This document shows, piece by piece, positions 5,150-55,147 of a DNA stretch of 64,000 nucleotides. Below the pieces are notes generated by a model. It saw only the letters and a list, made by a program, of their open reading frames with translations, was not told the origin of the DNA and ran no database searches. The position numbers and the translations under genes are program-made. The DNA comes from Streptomyces sp. NBC_00691 (GTDB lineage: Bacteria; Actinomycetota; Actinomycetes; Streptomycetales; Streptomycetaceae): NCBI RefSeq assembly GCF_036226665.1, contig NZ_CP109007.1, forward strand, positions 4,380,501 to 4,444,500, written 5' to 3'. Every line of letters begins with the position of its first letter. Positions within the stretch are counted from its first letter, which is position 1.

Positions 5150-6379
5150 ATGAGCAACGACCAGTACTACGGCGGTCAGCAGTACGACCCGTACGCGAAC
5201 GGGCACGCGAACGGGACCGGGAACGGGCACCAGGAGCAGCAGGGCCCCGACGTCACGCAGACGTGGGAGGGCCAGACCTGGGACACCCAGTTCCAGCCGG
5301 CCGTCACGTACGAGCAGGTCCAGGCCGACCGGGCGCGGGCCGCGCAGGCCCCCCAGTCCCAGCAGGCCTACCAGCAGCACCCCCACCAGCCCCAGCAGCA
5401 GCCGTACGAGACGTACGCGCCGGGTCAGGCCTCGTACGAGTCGTACGGGACGCCCGCCGCCTCCTACACGGAGCCGCAGCAGCAGCCTCAGTACCAGGCG
5501 CAGCCCCAGCCGGTGGCGGCTCCCGCTCCCGCCCCCGTCGTGGAGCCCGCTCCGGCGCCGCCCGCGGCCTCCGGTGAGGCGGGTCCCGGCTGGTCCTCGC
5601 CGACCACCTCCGGGAACACCCGCGTCACCGACGCCCAGCGCGCCCGCGCCGAGGGCCGCTCGCCGATCATCGCGCCGGGGATGCAGCCCGCCGCGCTGAC
5701 CGCCGTCCTCGGACTGCTGCTCGCGGGTGGCGCCGCCCTCGGCACGTACGGACTCCTCGTCCCGCTCGTGCTGCTCCAGGGCCTCACCGCCGCCGGCTGG
5801 TTCCGGCTCAACGGCATGTGGCCCGCCCGTCAGGGCATCGCCCTCGCCTTCGCCGGCGGCCTGGCCGCCGACGCCGTCCTGCTCGTCACCGGCCGGGAGA
5901 ACGCGGCCGCCGCGATCTTCGGCACGCTCGGCGTCTGGGTGCTGCTCTGCCTGGTCCTCCAGCTGCGCAGCCACGCCGACCCGGACGAGCGCATGTACGG
6001 CCTGATGGCCACCATCGCCTCGGCCGCCCTCGCCGTCGTCGCCACCGGACACCTGGGCGCCGACCCGGACGCGGTCGTCGTCGGCGGGGCCGCGGTCGCC
6101 GCGGCCGTCCTCGCCCGGGCGCTCCCGCTGCCCGGACCCGTCTCCCTGGTCGCCGGGCTGCTGGCGTCGGCGGGCGCGGGGATCGCCGCCGGCGGTCTCA
6201 CCGGCCTGGGTTCCTCCGGTGCGCTGCTCGGCCTCGGGGCCGGGGCCTGCGCGCTGGTCGGCCTGCGGGTGGCGAGCTACGACTACCCGTCCCGTTTCGT
6301 GCACATGACGGCCGGTGTGGCGCTGCCGCTGACGGCCGCCGCACCCGCCGTCTACCTGCTGGGCCGGGTCCTGGCCTGA
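5150..6379 (+). CDS. Polytopic membrane protein with Gln/Tyr/Pro-rich N-terminus
   Basis: About 409 aa of unknown function. Residues ~1-170 are low complexity, rich in Gln, Tyr, Pro and Ala (QQYDPYAN, QQPYETYAPG), and probably cytoplasmic and disordered. From ~180 onward there are about eight hydrophobic segments rich in Ala, Gly, Leu and Val, so the second half is an integral membrane domain. The start is the ATG at 5150, 11 nt after the MoaD-like stop, served by GGAGGG. A perfect hairpin terminator follows at 6429-6468. I do not recognise a named family. Confidence 0.8.
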   Translation: MSNDQYYGGQQYDPYANGHANGTGNGHQEQQGPDVTQTWEGQTWDTQFQPAVTYEQVQADRARAAQAPQSQQAYQQHPHQPQQQPYETYAPGQASYESYGTPAASYTEPQQQPQYQAQPQPVAAPAPAPVVEPAPAPPAASGEAGPGWSSPTTSGNTRVTDAQRARAEGRSPIIAPGMQPAALTAVLGLLLAGGAALGTYGLLVPLVLLQGLTAAGWFRLNGMWPARQGIALAFAGGLAADAVLLVTGRENAAAAIFGTLGVWVLLCLVLQLRSHADPDERMYGLMATIASAALAVVATGHLGADPDAVVVGGAAVAAAVLARALPLPGPVSLVAGLLASAGAGIAAGGLTGLGSSGALLGLGAGACALVGLRVASYDYPSRFVHMTAGVALPLTAAAPAVYLLGRVLA

Positions 6380-49887: not shown

Positions 49888-50847
49888 ATGGCCGGGAACA
49901 GCCAGCGCAGGAACCGTCGCACGTCCAACAAGAAGGGTGCGACGATCGGCAGCGGTGGCCAGCGGCGCAAGGGCCTCGAAGGCAAGGGCCCGACCCCCAA
50001 GGCCGAGGCCCGCAAGGGCCACAAGGCATTCCGCGTCAACAACGCGATGGCCCGGAACGCGGCCAAGCGCAAGCCCGTCGTCCGCCGCGGCGGCAAGGGC
50101 CAGTCCGAGATGGTCGTCGGCCGCAACCCGGTCTACGAGGCCCTGCGCGACGGCGTGCCCGCCTCGACGCTGTACGTGCAGCAGTTCATCGACAACGACG
50201 AGCGCGTGCGCGAGGCCCTGAACCTCGCCACCGGCCGCGGCAACATCAACATCATGGAGGCGCCGCGCCCCGAGCTCGACCGGATGACGAACGGCCTGAA
50301 CCACCAGGGTCTCGTCCTCCAGGTCCCGCCGTACGAGTACGCGCACCCCGAGGACCTCGTCACGGCCGCGTTCGACGACCACGACGACCCGCTGATCGTC
50401 GCCCTCGACGGCGTCACCGACCCGCGGAACCTCGGCGCCGTCGTCCGCTCCGTCTCCGCCTTCGGCGGCCACGGTGTCGTCGTCCCCGAGCGGCGCGCCG
50501 CCGGCATGACCGCCGGTGCGTGGAAGACCTCGGCCGGCACCGCCGCCCGTACCCCGGTCGCCCGCGCCACCAACCTGACGCGCTGCCTGGAGCAGTACCA
50601 GAAGGCCGGTGTCACGGTCGTCGGCCTCGCCGCCGACGGTGACCGCGAGGTGCACGAGCTGGAGGAGCTGGGCGGTCCGGTCGTCATCGTCGTCGGCTCC
50701 GAGGGCAAGGGCCTGTCCCGCCTCGTCGGCGAGACCTGCGACTTCCTCGTCCGCATCCCGATGCCGGGCGGCGCCGAGTCGCTCAACGCCGGTGTCGCCG
50801 CCGGTGTCGTGCTCTACGAGGCGGCCCGCCGCCGGATGGCCCGCTGA
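49888..50847 (+). CDS. rlmB: RlmB/TrmH-family 23S rRNA 2'-O-methyltransferase
   Basis: A 319-aa SpoU/TrmH methyltransferase. A very basic N-terminal tail (~1-75: [26 protein letters not shown]) precedes the L30-like substrate-binding domain ([14 protein letters not shown]) and the knotted SAM domain with motifs [22 protein letters not shown] and [17 protein letters not shown]. It probably methylates G2251 of 23S rRNA. Located after cysS, as in mycobacteria. Start ATG at 49888; ATG at 49876 is possible. Confidence 0.9.
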
Positions 50848-50874
50848 CACCGGTCGCGTAGCCCACGGGCCGGT

Positions 50875-50893
50875 AGCCCGTGGCCCACGGGCT
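50875..50893 (+). terminator. Inverted repeats downstream of rlmB
   Basis: AGCCCGTGG-C-CCACGGGCT, 9-bp perfect arms; an overlapping repeat unit (CCACGGGC-N5-GCCCGTGG, about 50863-50883) can form an alternative hairpin. Confidence 0.55.
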
Positions 50894-51032
50894 CCGTAGC
50901 TCACGAGTCCCGCAGCTCACCGGCCCGGAGGACCACCGGGCCGGCGAGGACTCACCGGCAGGACACCCGCGCCCTCGCCTCCGTGCGCGGGCGCGCCCTC
51001 GCCTCCGCCCGCCACCGCGCCCTCCGCCCGCC

Positions 51033-51665
51033 TCAGGTCGTCAGGCCCGCGAGGCGGGCGCGGGTCATCGCGGCGATGGTGAAACCGTCCGTGATGCGGC
51101 CGTCGGCGATCATCCCCTCCGCCTCCGCGAAGGGGATCGTCAGCGCACTCCGGATGGCCTCCGCCTCCGCCAGCCGGCCGATCGCGTCGATCCGGGCCGC
51201 GAAGAGCAGGACACGGTCGCCCGTTATCCCGCTGTCCGGATGCAGCTCGCCCAGCGGGATCAGCTCCTCCACCCGCGCCCCGATCTCCTCGTCGAGCTCC
51301 TTCGCCGCGTTCGCCCGGCTCGACAGGCCCCGGGTGCCGAAGCCCCGCGGCAGCTCCCACTGCCAGGACCGGGTGGCGTGCCGGTAGTGCTCGATGAGCA
51401 CGATCCGGTCGCCGAGCAGCGGCAGCACGACACAGCCGGGCTCGGCCGTCACGCTCAGGGAGCGGATGTACGTGCCCTCCCGGCCGTCCGGGAAGCGCAC
51501 CGGATCCCGGACGAGCAGGACGTACGGATCCTGGTAGAGCACCCCCCCGGCGGCCGCGACCGCGTCCGGGTCGGTCAGGATCTCGATGCCGCCCGGCTCG
51601 TTGCGGAACAGCTCCGGCCGTTCGGCGCGCAGCTGCTCGTAGCGGCGCGCGGGCTCCCTGCTCAT
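51033..51665 (-). CDS. Nudix-domain hydrolase with a modified Nudix box
   Basis: 210 aa. The Nudix box region GFGTRGLSSRANAAKELDEE then IG fits the spacing G-x5-E-x7-REUxEExGU, but the first conserved Glu is Leu and the Arg is Lys, while the metal-binding EE pair remains. Sequence before it (VLIEHYRHATRSWQWELPRG) is like ADP-ribose pyrophosphatases. Activity on ADP-ribose or a related compound is likely but could be reduced or altered. Start ATG at 51665, directly downstream of the 560-aa gene on the same strand. Confidence 0.83.
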   Translation of the reverse strand: MSREPARRYEQLRAERPELFRNEPGGIEILTDPDAVAAAGGVLYQDPYVLLVRDPVRFPDGREGTYIRSLSVTAEPGCVVLPLLGDRIVLIEHYRHATRSWQWELPRGFGTRGLSSRANAAKELDEEIGARVEELIPLGELHPDSGITGDRVLLFAARIDAIGRLAEAEAIRSALTIPFAEAEGMIADGRITDGFTIAAMTRARLAGLTT

Positions 51666-51702
51666 GCGCGGACCCTGCCTTTCCCGGCCCCTGGCCGGCT
51701 CG

Positions 51703-53385
51703 TCACTGGTCGGGCTGGCACTGCTGGTCGGCCTGGCGGGGTACGCCGGGCAGCCGTCCCGTCTCGACGATCGGCCCTCCGTACGCCCCCCGGATCGCCT
51801 CCCAGTCACGCTTCAGGTTGCCCAGCCGCAGCGTCGGCAATGTCAGCGAGTGCCCGAGACCTCCGCGACGGCCCTTCGAGCCGCGGTCGCGGAACTCGAG
51901 CCGGATCGTCAGCGCCCCCGCGGCCGCCGTCAGCAGCTGGATCGACCCGGCGAGCAGCGACACCTCCTCGCCGCTCGTCACCTGGAGGGCGACCCCGCCC
52001 GCCTCGATGACCAGGACCGAGACGATGTCCCGGGCGAACCCGTTGCCGCTGCCGCTCGTCGCGCGCGCGGTCCGCAGCATCCGCGCGTGCCGCCGCGCCA
52101 CCTCGGAGGTGCCCGCCGAGAACTCTTCGGGAGAGGGGATCCGCCCGTCCTCGAAGCCGCCGCGGACGAAGGCGTCGAGCGCGTCCACGTACGCCCGCCA
52201 CTCCTCCTCCCGCCGCAGCCGGTTGATGTCGGCCAGCGAGAGACCGGCGTACGAGTTCGGCCCGTCCACCGCCCGGTGCAGCGAGTCCGCGAACAGATCG
52301 CGCAGCAGCCGGCCGATCGCCTCCGGGTCGTCGTCGCGGGGCCGCAGGTCGCTGCGCAGCTCCTGGAGCGTCGAGCGGGGCGGGGAGTCCGGCGGGGTGA
52401 CCGGGATCAGCCCGCCGGCCCGGGGCACGCCCAGGCTGTAGAGCAGGTCGATCAGCTGCTTGGTGGGCACGATGTGATCGCCGTCGCGCAGCAGGTTCTC
52501 GTACGGGTCGGTGCCGGGCCGGGTGATGAACCGCTGGTAGAGCGCGTTACGGGTGATGTCCCGGTCGTTGTCCTGCTCACCGGCCCAGAAGTAGATGTCC
52601 TTGAGGACGCCCTCGCGCATCGACCGGGCCAGCTCCTCCGGGATGCCGAGGTCCTGGGCGAGCTGCGGCGCCCGCAGCCGGCGGAGGGAGGAGACGTGGG
52701 TGGAGAAGAAGTTGCCGACCTGGCCGGCCTTCTCGCCGTTGGCCTCGTCGTCCCAGTCGAAGCGGACGAGCGCGGGTTCGGCCTCCTCCGTCACGAGGCG
52801 GCGCCAGGCGTGTCCGACCGCCCGGTCGTGGGCCCAGGTGAAGTCCGCGGCGGGTTCCCGCTCCGTGTACAGGTACGGGATCAGCACCCGGTCGTTCAGG
52901 AGCCGCACGAACGCGTCCCGCTCCACCGGGTCGGCGGACGGCAGGTAGTTCGTGTACAGCGCCTCGTTGTTGAGGAGGAACGCGCGGTTGACCACCAGGG
53001 TGCCGCTGTTCACAAGTGAGCGGCGCAGTTCCGCGGAGGCGGCCTCGACCGCCTCCACGGGCGGTCTGGCCGGCGCGGAGGCGTGCTGGCGGGCGCCCGC
53101 GAGTCCGGCGGGCAGCCACTGGTTGTCGAGGGCTTGTGCCATCACCGGATAGTCGTGGAGATCGCCGAAGACCAGCTGGTGGGGCTCCCGTTCGGGACCG
53201 GCGGGAGGCGCGGCGGCTCGTACGGGACCGGCCTGAGGGGTGGCGTCCCGTGAGGGACGGCTCGGAGCTCCGGTCGCGGAGGTCGCGGCGGGTGCGGAAT
53301 CCCCGGGAGAGCGGGGCTCGGGCACCCTGTCGAGCGCTGTGTCCGGGCCCTGCGCGGTCCCCGGCTGCGGGACGGGATCGTTCAT
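51703..53385 (-). CDS. Unrecognised 560-aa protein
   Basis: A long soluble-looking protein that I cannot place. Residues ~1-70 are Pro/Ala-rich and disordered; ~75-460 are charged and mainly helical with Trp and aromatic clusters (FTWAHDRAVGHAWRRL, DIYFWAGEQDNDRDI); a hydrophobic, membrane-like segment is near ~470-515 (DIVSVLVIEAGGVALQV, LLTAAAGALTIRLEF). The last ~45 residues are Gly/Arg-rich. No enzyme motif was found. GGGAG precedes the ATG at 53385. Upstream there are two adjacent palindromes in an AT-rich patch. The Nudix gene starts 37 bp beyond its stop. Confidence 0.75.
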   Translation of the reverse strand: MNDPVPQPGTAQGPDTALDRVPEPRSPGDSAPAATSATGAPSRPSRDATPQAGPVRAAAPPAGPEREPHQLVFGDLHDYPVMAQALDNQWLPAGLAGARQHASAPARPPVEAVEAASAELRRSLVNSGTLVVNRAFLLNNEALYTNYLPSADPVERDAFVRLLNDRVLIPYLYTEREPAADFTWAHDRAVGHAWRRLVTEEAEPALVRFDWDDEANGEKAGQVGNFFSTHVSSLRRLRAPQLAQDLGIPEELARSMREGVLKDIYFWAGEQDNDRDITRNALYQRFITRPGTDPYENLLRDGDHIVPTKQLIDLLYSLGVPRAGGLIPVTPPDSPPRSTLQELRSDLRPRDDDPEAIGRLLRDLFADSLHRAVDGPNSYAGLSLADINRLRREEEWRAYVDALDAFVRGGFEDGRIPSPEEFSAGTSEVARRHARMLRTARATSGSGNGFARDIVSVLVIEAGGVALQVTSGEEVSLLAGSIQLLTAAAGALTIRLEFRDRGSKGRRGGLGHSLTLPTLRLGNLKRDWEAIRGAYGGPIVETGRLPGVPRQADQQCQPDQ

Positions 53386-53435
53386 GGCGGCGCTCCCTGT
53401 GCTCGTCCGGGTCAACTCATAAGATTCTAAGGAAG

Positions 53436-53463
53436 ATTGACGATCAATAACCGAACGTCGGTT
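53436..53463. promoter_or_regulatory. Twin palindromes upstream of the 560-aa gene
   Basis: ATTGA-CGA-TCAAT (53436-53448) abuts AACCGA-ACG-TCGGTT (53449-53463). Both are perfect, with 3-nt centres, in an unusually AT-rich stretch between divergent genes. Candidate operator for an unidentified regulator. Confidence 0.6.
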
Positions 53464-53545
53464 CCTCCGGCACCGTTGATCTTGACGGGTCTCGGACATT
53501 TGCGAGCCGTCAAGGCAGTGTCCTAAACCCAGATCACTCGGTTAG

Positions 53546-55147
53546 ATGAGTGTGGACACCAGAACGCCCCGGCCGGGGTTCGACGATCAGCCCGCGTTGA
53601 GCATGGTCAAGGTGGATTCCGATCCCGCCCAGGTGATCGTGAACCACGCCAGCTTCCGGGTACGGCTCGCGCCTGCCCCGCAGCCGAAGATCGGCGCCCG
53701 CACCGCGGCCCTGTCCGGGGCGGGAGCGGGCGGACCGCGCCGTCGTCCCGTCGTATGGACCGGAAAGTCCTCGCCGGGCGCGACCGGCCTCCTCCAGGCC
53801 GTCCGCGAGTCCTCCGTCTCCACGCTCGAACCGGCGGTCGGCCGCGGCGGTCACGGCCGCCACGCGGGTCTGGACGGGGGCTCCACCCAGGCCATCCCGC
53901 GCATCGACGACACCATGCCCACCCCCGTGGTGACCGCCGACTCCGGCCCCCTGCTGCCGCCGATGCGCCGCGCCGAGGGCGCGTACGACGATCTGTACGA
54001 GCTCCGCCCCGAGAGCGGCGGACCCGGCTCGGCGACGTACGAGGACGAGACGGCCGAGGCACGCCCCGCGCAGCGCCACGGACAGGACACCGTCCGGCAC
54101 GCCTACTACCCCGGCCGCCGGATGAACCTCGGCGTCGTCCTCCTCCCGCTCCGCGTCTTCCTCGGCTTCATCTCCATCTACGCGGGCATGGGCAAGCTCT
54201 GCGACCCCGTCTACTTCGACGGCGGCGAGCGCGGCTCCATGGTGAAGTGGCTCAACTCCCTGCACCCCTGGCCCCTCGCCGAACCCCTCCGCGACTTCGC
54301 CCTGCAGCACCCGGTCGGCGCCGGACTCACCGTCGCCTTCCTCCAGGTCGTCGTCGGCGTCCTCACCGTCCTCGGCCTCTGGCAGCGCGTCGCCGCCGTC
54401 GTCGGCGCCCTGCTCTCCGCCGCGCTGCTGCTCACGGTCAGCTGGAAGACCGTCCCGGTCTACGACTCCGCCGACATCATCTTCCTGGCCGCCTGGTCCC
54501 CGCTGATCATCGCCGGCGCCCCGGTCTACTCGATCGACGGCCGCCTCGCCGGAGAGGCCTGGCGCACCCTCGGCCCGCGCGCCGACCTGTGGGACCTGCG
54601 CCGCCGTGTCATCCGCCGCAGCAGCCTCGTCACCGCGGTCGTCGTCGGCCTCACCCTCCTCATCGGCTCCGTCCTCGGCGGCGCCGTCCGCTCCACCGAG
54701 ATGGTCACCGTCCCGGGCCCCAACGACGACCCGATCAACCACCTCCCGGGCCGTCCGCTCCCCACCGAGCCGACGCGCCGCGCTCCCTCCAAGGCCGCGT
54801 CCACCGTGCCGGCGCCCGCCGCGACCAGCGAGGCCCCGGCGGAGCGCGAGGAGACGCGGGAGGCGACCAAGCCCACCGAGACCACCCGCGAGGCCACCCG
54901 TACGCAGCAGCGGCGCCCGACGGCCACGCAGGGCACGGGCACCGGTGGCGGCGGCAGCAGCCGTACGCCGACGCGGTCGAACCCGGAGCCCCCGCCGTCC
55001 ACCAGCGACACCCCGAGCAGCACGGGCGGCAGCGCGTCGAGCGGCGGCTCCGGCGGCGGCTCCGGCGGCGGCTCGACGGGCACCCCGTCGGAGAGCGGCT
55101 CCACGTCGGGCGGGGCGAAGAATCCGATCGGCGGACTGCTGGGCTGA
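53546..55147 (+). CDS. DoxX-family membrane protein with long tails
   Basis: 533 aa. A soluble N-terminal region of ~185 residues is followed by a four-helix DoxX domain (~190-340; MNLGVVLLPLRVFLGFISIYAG opens it, then TVAFLQVVVGVLTVLGLWQR) and another membrane helix near ~368-386. The C-terminal ~140 residues are Thr/Ser/Gly/Pro rich (SSGGSGGGSGGGSTG), likely extracytoplasmic. DoxX proteins are linked to thiol/redox stress and membrane sulfur metabolism in mycobacteria. Followed by a 20-bp hairpin. Confidence 0.83.
   Translation: MSVDTRTPRPGFDDQPALSMVKVDSDPAQVIVNHASFRVRLAPAPQPKIGARTAALSGAGAGGPRRRPVVWTGKSSPGATGLLQAVRESSVSTLEPAVGRGGHGRHAGLDGGSTQAIPRIDDTMPTPVVTADSGPLLPPMRRAEGAYDDLYELRPESGGPGSATYEDETAEARPAQRHGQDTVRHAYYPGRRMNLGVVLLPLRVFLGFISIYAGMGKLCDPVYFDGGERGSMVKWLNSLHPWPLAEPLRDFALQHPVGAGLTVAFLQVVVGVLTVLGLWQRVAAVVGALLSAALLLTVSWKTVPVYDSADIIFLAAWSPLIIAGAPVYSIDGRLAGEAWRTLGPRADLWDLRRRVIRRSSLVTAVVVGLTLLIGSVLGGAVRSTEMVTVPGPNDDPINHLPGRPLPTEPTRRAPSKAASTVPAPAATSEAPAEREETREATKPTETTREATRTQQRRPTATQGTGTGGGGSSRTPTRSNPEPPPSTSDTPSSTGGSASSGGSGGGSGGGSTGTPSESGSTSGGAKNPIGGLLG

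What the first reader, a model, noticed from the sequence alone, without database searches (positions are those of the whole stretch)
51703..53463. Unrecognised 560-aa protein with twin palindromes upstream and a Nudix partner
I could place almost every other long gene in the window in a family, but not this one. It has a disordered N-terminus, a large helical middle and a hydrophobic segment near the C-terminus. Two abutting perfect palindromes lie 51-78 bp upstream in an AT-rich patch, and a Nudix gene with an altered Nudix box follows 37 bp after its stop. This could be a two-gene, nucleotide-linked system; the functional idea is inference.
Basis: partly seen in the sequence, partly recalled or inferred. 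Interest (0 to 1): 0.6.

Follow-up and report, generated by a model that had tools for sequence, protein, structure and literature searches.

The report
Mobile Nudix gene pair, unknown partner
In Streptomyces and another family of actinobacteria, an unrecognised protein of about 500 residues was found every time next to the same kind of Nudix hydrolase, and the two appear to move around chromosomes together as a two-gene unit that resembles a toxin-antitoxin or conflict module, though its chemistry is still unknown.

Summary
The 560-aa gene (51703-53385, minus strand) matches no family in Pfam, NCBIfam, PADLOC, PHROGs or PDB sequences; a Nudix gene starts 37 bp after its stop.

The link is real. 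All 36 P560 genes examined (the window's included; Streptomyces and a second actinomycete family) have a Nudix gene of one subfamily beside them. The 34 loci compared fall into 18 different genomic neighbourhoods, so the pair moves as a unit. In the window it is a 2.6-kb insertion between rlmB and a DoxX gene, which adjoin in 14 of 15 genomes checked that lack the pair there.

The association is asymmetric: no intact P560 without the Nudix was found, but 11 Streptomyces or Embleya plasmid records carry the Nudix without a detectable P560. That suggests an effector with its neutraliser; this is inference.

Three details weaken. The palindromes persist only in very close relatives. The disordered N-terminus is lineage-specific and nearly unconstrained. 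The 'altered' Nudix box keeps its metal-binding glutamates, and some relatives are canonical.

Both structure predictions failed (pLDDT 40); no fold is known. Best reading: an undescribed mobile two-gene module whose Nudix is of the ADP-ribose/NDP-sugar class.

The parts
51703..53385 (-). P560: the 560-aa protein of an undescribed family (conserved core = residues 69 to about 540)
   Evidence: ORF; homologues; purifying selection on the core, dN/dS about 0.16-0.19 against L045 and L004
51033..51665 (-). Nudix hydrolase partner, 210 aa, ADP-ribose/NDP-sugar pyrophosphatase class
   Evidence: Pfam NUDIX E 6e-7; PDB 2yvm 4.5e-16 by sequence and 9.6e-24 by profile
51276..51344 (-). Nudix box GFGTRGLSSRANAAKELDEEIGA: first E to L and R to K, glutamates E..EE kept
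53182..53385 (-). N-terminal extension (residues 1-68), lineage-specific and weakly constrained
   Evidence: no comparable extension in L005, L006 and L028; GC3 0.77; dN/dS 0.5-1.2
53436..53448 (.). inverted repeat ATTGACGATCAAT (arms 5, centre 3)
   Evidence: intact in L045 and L004, absent in L005 and L006
53449..53463 (.). inverted repeat AACCGAACGTCGGTT (arms 6, centre 3)
   Evidence: weakened in L045, broken in L004, absent in L005 and L006
53424..53429 (-). possible -10 element TAGAAT of the P560 promoter, 39 nt before the ATG; the inverted repeats would lie at its -35/spacer region
   Evidence: read by eye; TAGAAT kept in L003 and L004; the consensus scan found no sigma-70 site, so inference only
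50854..53476 (.). extent of the inserted cassette (P560, Nudix and the palindrome patch) between rlmB and the DoxX gene
   Evidence: DNA homology to genome G015 (L099), which lacks the pair at this locus, stops at about 50853 and resumes at about 53477
53477..53545 (+). conserved upstream region of the DoxX gene, NOT part of the cassette
   Evidence: matched in 14 of 15 genomes without the pair at this locus

Best explanation
P560 and its Nudix partner form a mobile two-gene module that works like a toxin/effector with its neutraliser. P560 would be an enzyme, of a fold not yet recognised, that makes or attaches a nucleotide-diphosphate-type product such as an ADP-ribose derivative, harmful to or restricting growth of the cell, perhaps in response to a phage or plasmid. 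The co-encoded Nudix would hydrolyse that product and so set a threshold or protect the cell. Shown: physical linkage in every case examined, joint presence at unrelated loci, one-sided dependence (no intact P560 alone, Nudix sometimes alone), purifying selection, and Nudix class. Inferred: toxicity, the nature of the product, and neutralisation.
For: (1) Linkage: 36 of 36 P560 genes have the Nudix beside them. The window's own gene is counted; L007's P560 is cut by a contig end; L096's Nudix is cut and was recognised by eye. Of 33 pairs classified, 30 are P560->Nudix, 2 convergent, 1 Nudix->P560, so the link is not merely an operon frozen by descent. (2) Mobility: 34 loci in 18 neighbourhoods, grouped by two or more shared neighbour families within 6.5 kb; at that cut-off no other neighbour family spans more than 6 loci. 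In the window the pair is an insertion between rlmB and DoxX, which adjoin in 14 of 15 genomes without it at this locus. (3) Patchiness: 19 of 246 Streptomyces genomes, two of them remnants; 14 of 250 in a second family, one a remnant; 7 of 394 in the class; 2 of 396 in the phylum. (4) Reciprocity with asymmetry: of 11 of 101 Streptomyces genomes with this Nudix (E<=1e-20), 9 have P560 beside it. Of 13 of 250 in the second family, 12 also have P560, 11 of them adjacent and one (G996) split over two contigs. 11 plasmid records carry the Nudix, whereas five P560 queries found no credible plasmid homologue. In a Nudix tree the solo genes fall among the P560-linked ones; well-supported branches force at least 2 label changes, the best tree needs 4, shuffles 8.3. 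(5) P560 and Nudix distances correlate: Mantel r 0.73, or 0.67 after thinning; 0 of 2000 permutations reach either. (6) 39 P560 columns are conserved in at least 33 of 35 family members, among them R122, R208, R279, K309, D313, Y283 and Y316, as expected of an active or ligand-binding site rich in basic residues. (7) The Nudix catalytic glutamates are nearly invariant and its class is ADP-ribose/NDP-sugar.
Against: No toxicity or activity data exist. The protein is about 500 aa, far larger than usual toxins. The pairs sit in chromosomal neighbourhoods whose genes are mostly metabolic by Pfam (60 neighbours from 17 of 18 contexts), and they are inherited vertically within clades (six loci share the rlmB/DoxX position). 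PADLOC has no model for P560. No P560 was found in phages, viral contigs or plasmids. Some solo Nudix genes have other partners (a PLP-decarboxylase-like gene in 3 of 8 plasmids inspected), so they need not be leftover or captured antitoxins. The tree is rooted only at its midpoint and the fork that holds the main plasmid clade is weakly supported, so nesting is likely, not shown. With looser cut-offs an ABC-transporter-ATPase-like group, a very common superfamily, appears near 11 loci.
Confidence: 0.4

Rival explanations
1. A two-step metabolic or repair pair: P560 makes or releases an NDP-X compound (an NDP-sugar, cofactor or damaged nucleotide) and the Nudix processes it. It would be a niche pathway without toxicity.
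For: Stable chromosomal residence within clades and mostly metabolic neighbours; Nudix class includes NDP-sugar and cofactor pyrophosphatases; the Nudix is more conserved than P560, median 47% against 29% identity among 21 thinned loci; a plasmid subclade pairs the Nudix with a PLP-decarboxylase-like gene.
Against: Spread over 18 neighbourhoods with no third gene in common at the cut-off used; patchy presence and decay to remnants; plasmid Nudix genes without detectable P560.
Confidence: 0.3
2. An anti-phage or anti-plasmid system in which P560 is the sensor or signal-maker and the Nudix is the effector, which depletes a nucleotide pool when triggered.
For: Mobile, patchy two-gene unit; catalytic Nudix glutamates kept; published reasoning that NAD/ADPr-type Nudix domains take part in conflict systems (passages of PMC7159879, and of PMC9503650).
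Against: A Nudix effector would be expected to be the half that is dangerous alone, yet it is the half that is found alone; no PADLOC match for P560; neighbours give scattered PADLOC matches with no family in more than 4 of 60 proteins.
Confidence: 0.2
3. No functional link: the two genes are neighbours by descent and hitch-hiking.
For: Close relatives share one syntenic locus.
Against: 18 separate contexts, three gene arrangements and 36 of 36 co-occurrence; reciprocal searches.
Confidence: 0.02
4. The Nudix protein is a ligand sensor that represses the pair through the twin inverted repeats, and P560 is the only enzyme.
For: The repeats lie 51-78 bp upstream, where a promoter would be.
Against: Pfam finds one Nudix domain and no DNA-binding domain in the Nudix protein; the repeats are missing in L005 and L006, and I saw no shared repeat among the 28 upstream regions printed, a simple scan.
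Confidence: 0.05

Closest known systems
ADP-ribose / NDP-sugar pyrophosphatase class of Nudix hydrolases (PDB 2yvm MutT/nudix protein, NudF 5c7q, ADPR pyrophosphatase 1mk1, NudE 1vhg)
   Same: Nudix domain with glutamates E..EE; profile match E 9.6e-24 to 2yvm, 1.7e-16 to 1mk1 and 9.7e-11 to NudE
   Different: Own N-terminal stretch (Y..LR..RP..F.N) and HxD(T/S)G loop; below every curated NCBIfam cut-off it approaches; found with P560 or, on plasmids and in G072, alone
Toxin-antitoxin modules, in particular DarT-DarG (ADP-ribosyltransferase plus ADP-ribose hydrolase) as an analogy
   Same: Two adjacent genes; one half not found alone; the other half an enzyme of a class that acts on ADP-ribose-type bonds; patchy and mobile
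   Different: No sequence match of P560 to any toxin family; about 500 aa; the partner is a Nudix, not a macrodomain; toxicity untested. DarTG is cited from a search listing, a passage and recall; the comparison is an analogy
Actinobacterial conflict systems of Kaur et al. 2020 (eLife, PMC7159879), e.g. the EACC1 two-gene system
   Same: Two-gene units of multicellular actinobacteria; Nudix named there among possible NAD/ADPr-acting effector domains (passages)
   Different: Those pair EACC1 with caspase-domain proteins; P560 is not described in the three passages seen

Membership tests
Nudix hydrolase, ADP-ribose/NDP-sugar class (the partner) | Nudix profile match | tested here: met
   Pfam PF00293 E 6e-7, above the cut-off; PDB matches
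Nudix hydrolase, ADP-ribose/NDP-sugar class (the partner) | Full Nudix box GX5EX7REUXEEXGU (motif recalled) | tested here: not met
   In the window protein the first E is L and the R is K; the three glutamates are kept. Second-family members such as L056 are canonical
Nudix hydrolase, ADP-ribose/NDP-sugar class (the partner) | Hydrolysis of ADP-ribose or NDP-sugars | not testable with these tools
   needs an enzyme assay
Any named family (P560) | Match to a Pfam, NCBIfam, PHROGs, PADLOC or PDB sequence model | tested here: not met
   window protein; family members and profiles (not PHROGs); only chance-level hits
Any named fold (P560) | Confident predicted structure with a structural match | tested here: inconclusive
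   two AlphaFold2 runs with alignments of 5 and 6 rows gave mean pLDDT 39.9 and 39.8; no fold search was run on them
Toxin-antitoxin module | Two adjacent, usually co-oriented genes | tested here: met
   of 33 pairs classified, 30 P560->Nudix, 2 convergent, 1 reversed
Toxin-antitoxin module | Toxin not found without antitoxin, antitoxin may stand alone | tested here: met
   36 of 36 P560 with Nudix; solo Nudix on plasmids and in G072
Toxin-antitoxin module | Small proteins (recalled: mostly under about 200 aa) | tested here: not met
   P560 is 493-560 aa by the start codons used, one ORF 636 aa
Toxin-antitoxin module | Toxicity relieved by the partner | not testable with these tools
   needs expression experiments
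Known anti-phage defence system | Match of the pair to a PADLOC model | tested here: not met
   one member at E 0.041 to TniQ, chance level
Known anti-phage defence system | Residence in defence islands or on phages/plasmids | tested here: inconclusive
   no P560 in the phage, viral or plasmid collections; of 60 neighbours from 17 of 18 contexts, PADLOC models (no curated cut-offs, many of generic domains) match some, at most 4 proteins per family, while Pfam shows mostly metabolic genes

The most novel reading that the evidence does not exclude
P560 founds a new enzyme fold or family that makes an unknown nucleotide-diphosphate signal or modification, held in check by its dedicated Nudix. The pair is an undescribed class of actinobacterial conflict system, and Streptomyces megaplasmids carry the Nudix alone, derived from within the cassette lineage, as a counter-measure.
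Probability: 0.25. Interest if true: 0.85.

Novelty: new variant of a known kind. Interest (0 to 1): 0.55.

Why it matters
It turns a 'hypothetical protein' into a defined, testable two-gene system: an unrecognised, enzyme-like family with a strictly linked Nudix partner of predictable chemistry, intact in about one in fourteen of the Streptomyces genomes sampled (17 of 246). If P560 is toxic and the Nudix relieves it, the Nudix substrate would reveal a nucleotide signal or modification. The plasmid-borne solo Nudix genes would then be candidate counter-defences.

Tried and rejected
Structure: two AlphaFold2 jobs, full length (A1, 5 rows) and core 69-450 (A5, 6 rows), gave mean pLDDT of about 40. 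I ran no fold search on such models.

Sequence families: Pfam, NCBIfam, PADLOC, PHROGs and PDB sequences with the window protein; all but PHROGs also with members or profiles: nothing above chance. The weak second hit in the window's own genome (E 0.003) overlaps a secreted glycoside-hydrolase-like protein (the label is mine from reading) and looks like chance.

Palindromes as a system-wide operator: rejected, not conserved. Membrane protein: not shown. Frameshift in G082: suspected from split matches, rejected because the ORF is continuous (502 aa). Distant P560 beside the plasmid Nudix genes: ORFs of 8 plasmid loci do not match the profile. Link of plasmid Nudix genes to CHAT proteins: in L118 Pfam CHAT matches; in L119 the annotation says CHAT but Pfam finds nothing, so I draw no conclusion. 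Defence island: 60 neighbours scanned; PADLOC gives 26 families, none in more than 4 proteins, and I did not trace each match, so this is left open. Rfam found nothing at 50700-53700. A first clustering of contexts was spoiled by antisense ORFs and was redone without them and with stricter cut-offs.

Literature: five searches, of which I saw listings and abstract starts, and passages of PMC7159879, PMC13118837 and PMC9503650. What I saw does not describe this pair. The library holds open-licence PMC papers only.

Full report
What is there. The gene runs from ATG 53385 to a stop ending at 51703 on the minus strand and encodes 560 residues. 37 bp downstream on the same strand lies a 210-aa Nudix gene, 51665-51033. 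Further along is rlmB (name from my reading), and upstream, divergently, a DoxX-domain gene (Pfam DoxX E 3e-7). The window lies in an 8.3-Mb genome whose close named relatives are Streptomyces. The twin inverted repeats are at 53436-53448 and 53449-53463, with arms of 5 and 6 and 3-nt centres. A pair as good arose in 5 of 2000 dinucleotide shuffles of the intergenic region, by a criterion set after seeing them.

No known family. P560 gave no match in Pfam, NCBIfam, PADLOC, PHROGs or PDB sequences. Profiles and members of the extended family gave only chance-level hits. AlphaFold2 with the permitted alignments of five and six rows reached a mean pLDDT of only 39.9 and 39.8, so the fold is unknown. 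The predicted secondary structure is mostly helical, at low confidence.

The family. One scan of genome contigs gave five named Streptomyces loci. Profile searches of whole genomes gave 4 of 31 and 19 of 246 Streptomyces genomes, 7 of 394 in the class, 2 of 396 in the phylum, and 14 of 250 in a second family of the same class that the tool does not name. The larger searches score only a few candidates per genome, so the counts are lower bounds. Identity to the window protein ranges from 94% down to 22% in the 23-row alignment. The second-family member L055 is 47% identical to the window protein, far above the other-locus Streptomyces members at 22-29%, which suggests transfer between families. 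In 35 aligned members, 39 columns are conserved in at least 33; R122, R208, R279, Y283, K309, D313, L314, Y316, L382 and W396 are invariant. The first 68 residues are not part of the family: the 61-62% relatives lack a comparable extension, and the stretch has lower GC3 (0.77 against 0.94) and pairwise dN/dS of 0.5-1.2, against 0.16-0.19 for the core.

The linkage. Every P560 gene examined has the Nudix beside it: 36 of 36. These are the window, L004-L006, L007 (P560 cut at a contig end), L045 (same contig as L003) and 30 loci of other genomes; in L096 the Nudix itself is cut by the contig end and was recognised by eye in its first residues. I left out three remnants: L043 and L044, near heme-biosynthesis genes by my reading, and L098, where both genes are truncated. 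For the context analysis I used 34 loci, dropping L003, L045 and L007 as well. They fall into 18 neighbourhoods; 30 pairs are P560->Nudix, 2 are convergent and 1 is Nudix->P560, with L096 not classified. At the cut-off used no other neighbour family spans more than 6 loci; with looser cut-offs, before antisense ORFs were removed, an ABC-ATPase-like group reached 11 loci. The P560 and Nudix distance matrices correlate (r 0.73 for 34 loci, here with L045 and without L096; 0.67 for 21 thinned ones; 0 of 2000 permutations reach either).

Neighbours. I scanned 60 neighbouring proteins from 17 of the 18 contexts (not the window's). Pfam shows mostly metabolic, transport and regulatory families, none in more than 3 proteins (first 25 of 88 families seen). 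PADLOC models, which carry no curated cut-offs here and include generic ATPases and enzymes, match some, none in more than 4 proteins (first 25 of 26 families seen). I did not trace each match, so a defence-island setting is neither shown nor excluded.

The empty site. In 14 of 15 Streptomyces genomes without the pair at this locus, rlmB and the DoxX gene adjoin; in the 15th (L111) no DoxX match was seen. Against the closest, L099 (rlmB 97% identical), DNA homology to the window ends at about 50853 and resumes at about 53477. The cassette is thus about 2.6 kb and includes the palindrome patch. The conserved stretch from 53477 belongs to the DoxX gene and is present in 14 of these 15 genomes.

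The reciprocal test. In 101 Streptomyces genomes, 11 have the Nudix at E<=1e-20. In nine the P560 gene is adjacent; the other two are G025, on a 338-kb contig that matches plasmid NZ_CP108678, and G072, with no P560 match within the fetched 12.5 kb. In 250 genomes of the second family, 13 have it and 12 of these also have P560; the thirteenth match (G1150) is only 34% identical. Two P560-positive genomes there (G984, divergent, and G1001, a remnant) fall below this threshold. Eleven plasmid records, ten Streptomyces and one Embleya, carry a Nudix of 38-59% identity, eight of them over at least 80% of its length. No plasmid gave a credible P560 match with five different queries; the one weak hit had E 0.4. 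In a tree of 44 Nudix proteins the nine solo ones fall among the P560-linked ones: the best tree needs 4 label changes, well-supported branches force at least 2, and shuffles average 8.3. The root is only the midpoint and some forks are weak. I inspected 8 of the 11 plasmid loci. Three have a PLP-decarboxylase-like gene overlapping the Nudix start, so solo Nudix genes may have other partners.

The Nudix. It belongs with ADP-ribose/NDP-sugar pyrophosphatases (best PDB profile match 2yvm, E 9.6e-24). I therefore expect it to be active; the substrate is untested.

Palindromes. The first is intact in the two nearest relatives with an upstream region; the second is weakened or broken there; neither is present in L005 or L006 at the same locus, and no common repeat was seen upstream of other members. 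They may be a local operator: a TAGAAT at 53429-53424 would place them at the -35/spacer region. They are not part of the conserved system.

How it most likely works. The pattern (mobile, patchy, two-gene, one half not found alone, the other half of a class that hydrolyses nucleotide diphosphates and found alone on plasmids) fits an effector whose nucleotide-type product the Nudix destroys. Published reasoning that phage Nudix domains counter ADP-ribose-type immune signals (passages of PMC9503650) makes the plasmid copies plausible counter-measures. Toxicity, product and neutralisation are inferred. The main rival is a two-step metabolic pair. I put the toxin/effector reading at 0.4.

Novelty. 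In the five literature searches made I saw no description of this pair. The kind (a linked two-gene conflict-like module) is known; the large protein family and its pairing appear new.

Noticed in passing
53477-53560: The stretch upstream of and into the DoxX gene start (TTGACGGG...CCGTCAAGGCAGTGTCCTAA...CACTCGGTTAGATGAGTGTGGACACC) is conserved at 82-97% in 14 of 15 Streptomyces genomes without the cassette at this locus; in the window it holds an 11-nt inverted repeat, 91% complementary (53481-53491/53504-53514); a conserved regulatory region of unknown role.
   Followed up: partly
L043 6081-6581; L044 about 5929-6152; L098 5944-6326: Decayed copies: two near heme-biosynthesis genes (my reading) in Streptomyces, one in the second family where the start of P560 and the end of the Nudix survive close together in different frames, as after an internal deletion.
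   Followed up: partly
L115 3760-5633, L117 3769-5648, L121 2772-4645: On three Streptomyces megaplasmids the related Nudix gene overlaps by 4 bp the end of a PLP-dependent-decarboxylase-like gene, a possible alternative two-gene unit.
   Followed up: partly
L118 2186-5696; L119 1958-5687: Two plasmid Nudix genes lie next to genes annotated as CHAT-domain proteins; Pfam confirms CHAT only in L118.
   Followed up: partly
L120 4046-4447: A short plasmid Nudix with a degraded box (RTLQEKIG), probably inactive.
   Followed up: no
neighbours in A7 (60 proteins from 17 contexts): Among the neighbours, one protein matches the PADLOC candidate model PDC-M07A at E 2.9e-54 and four match mad3 (best E 3.8e-46); which proteins these are was not traced.
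   Followed up: no
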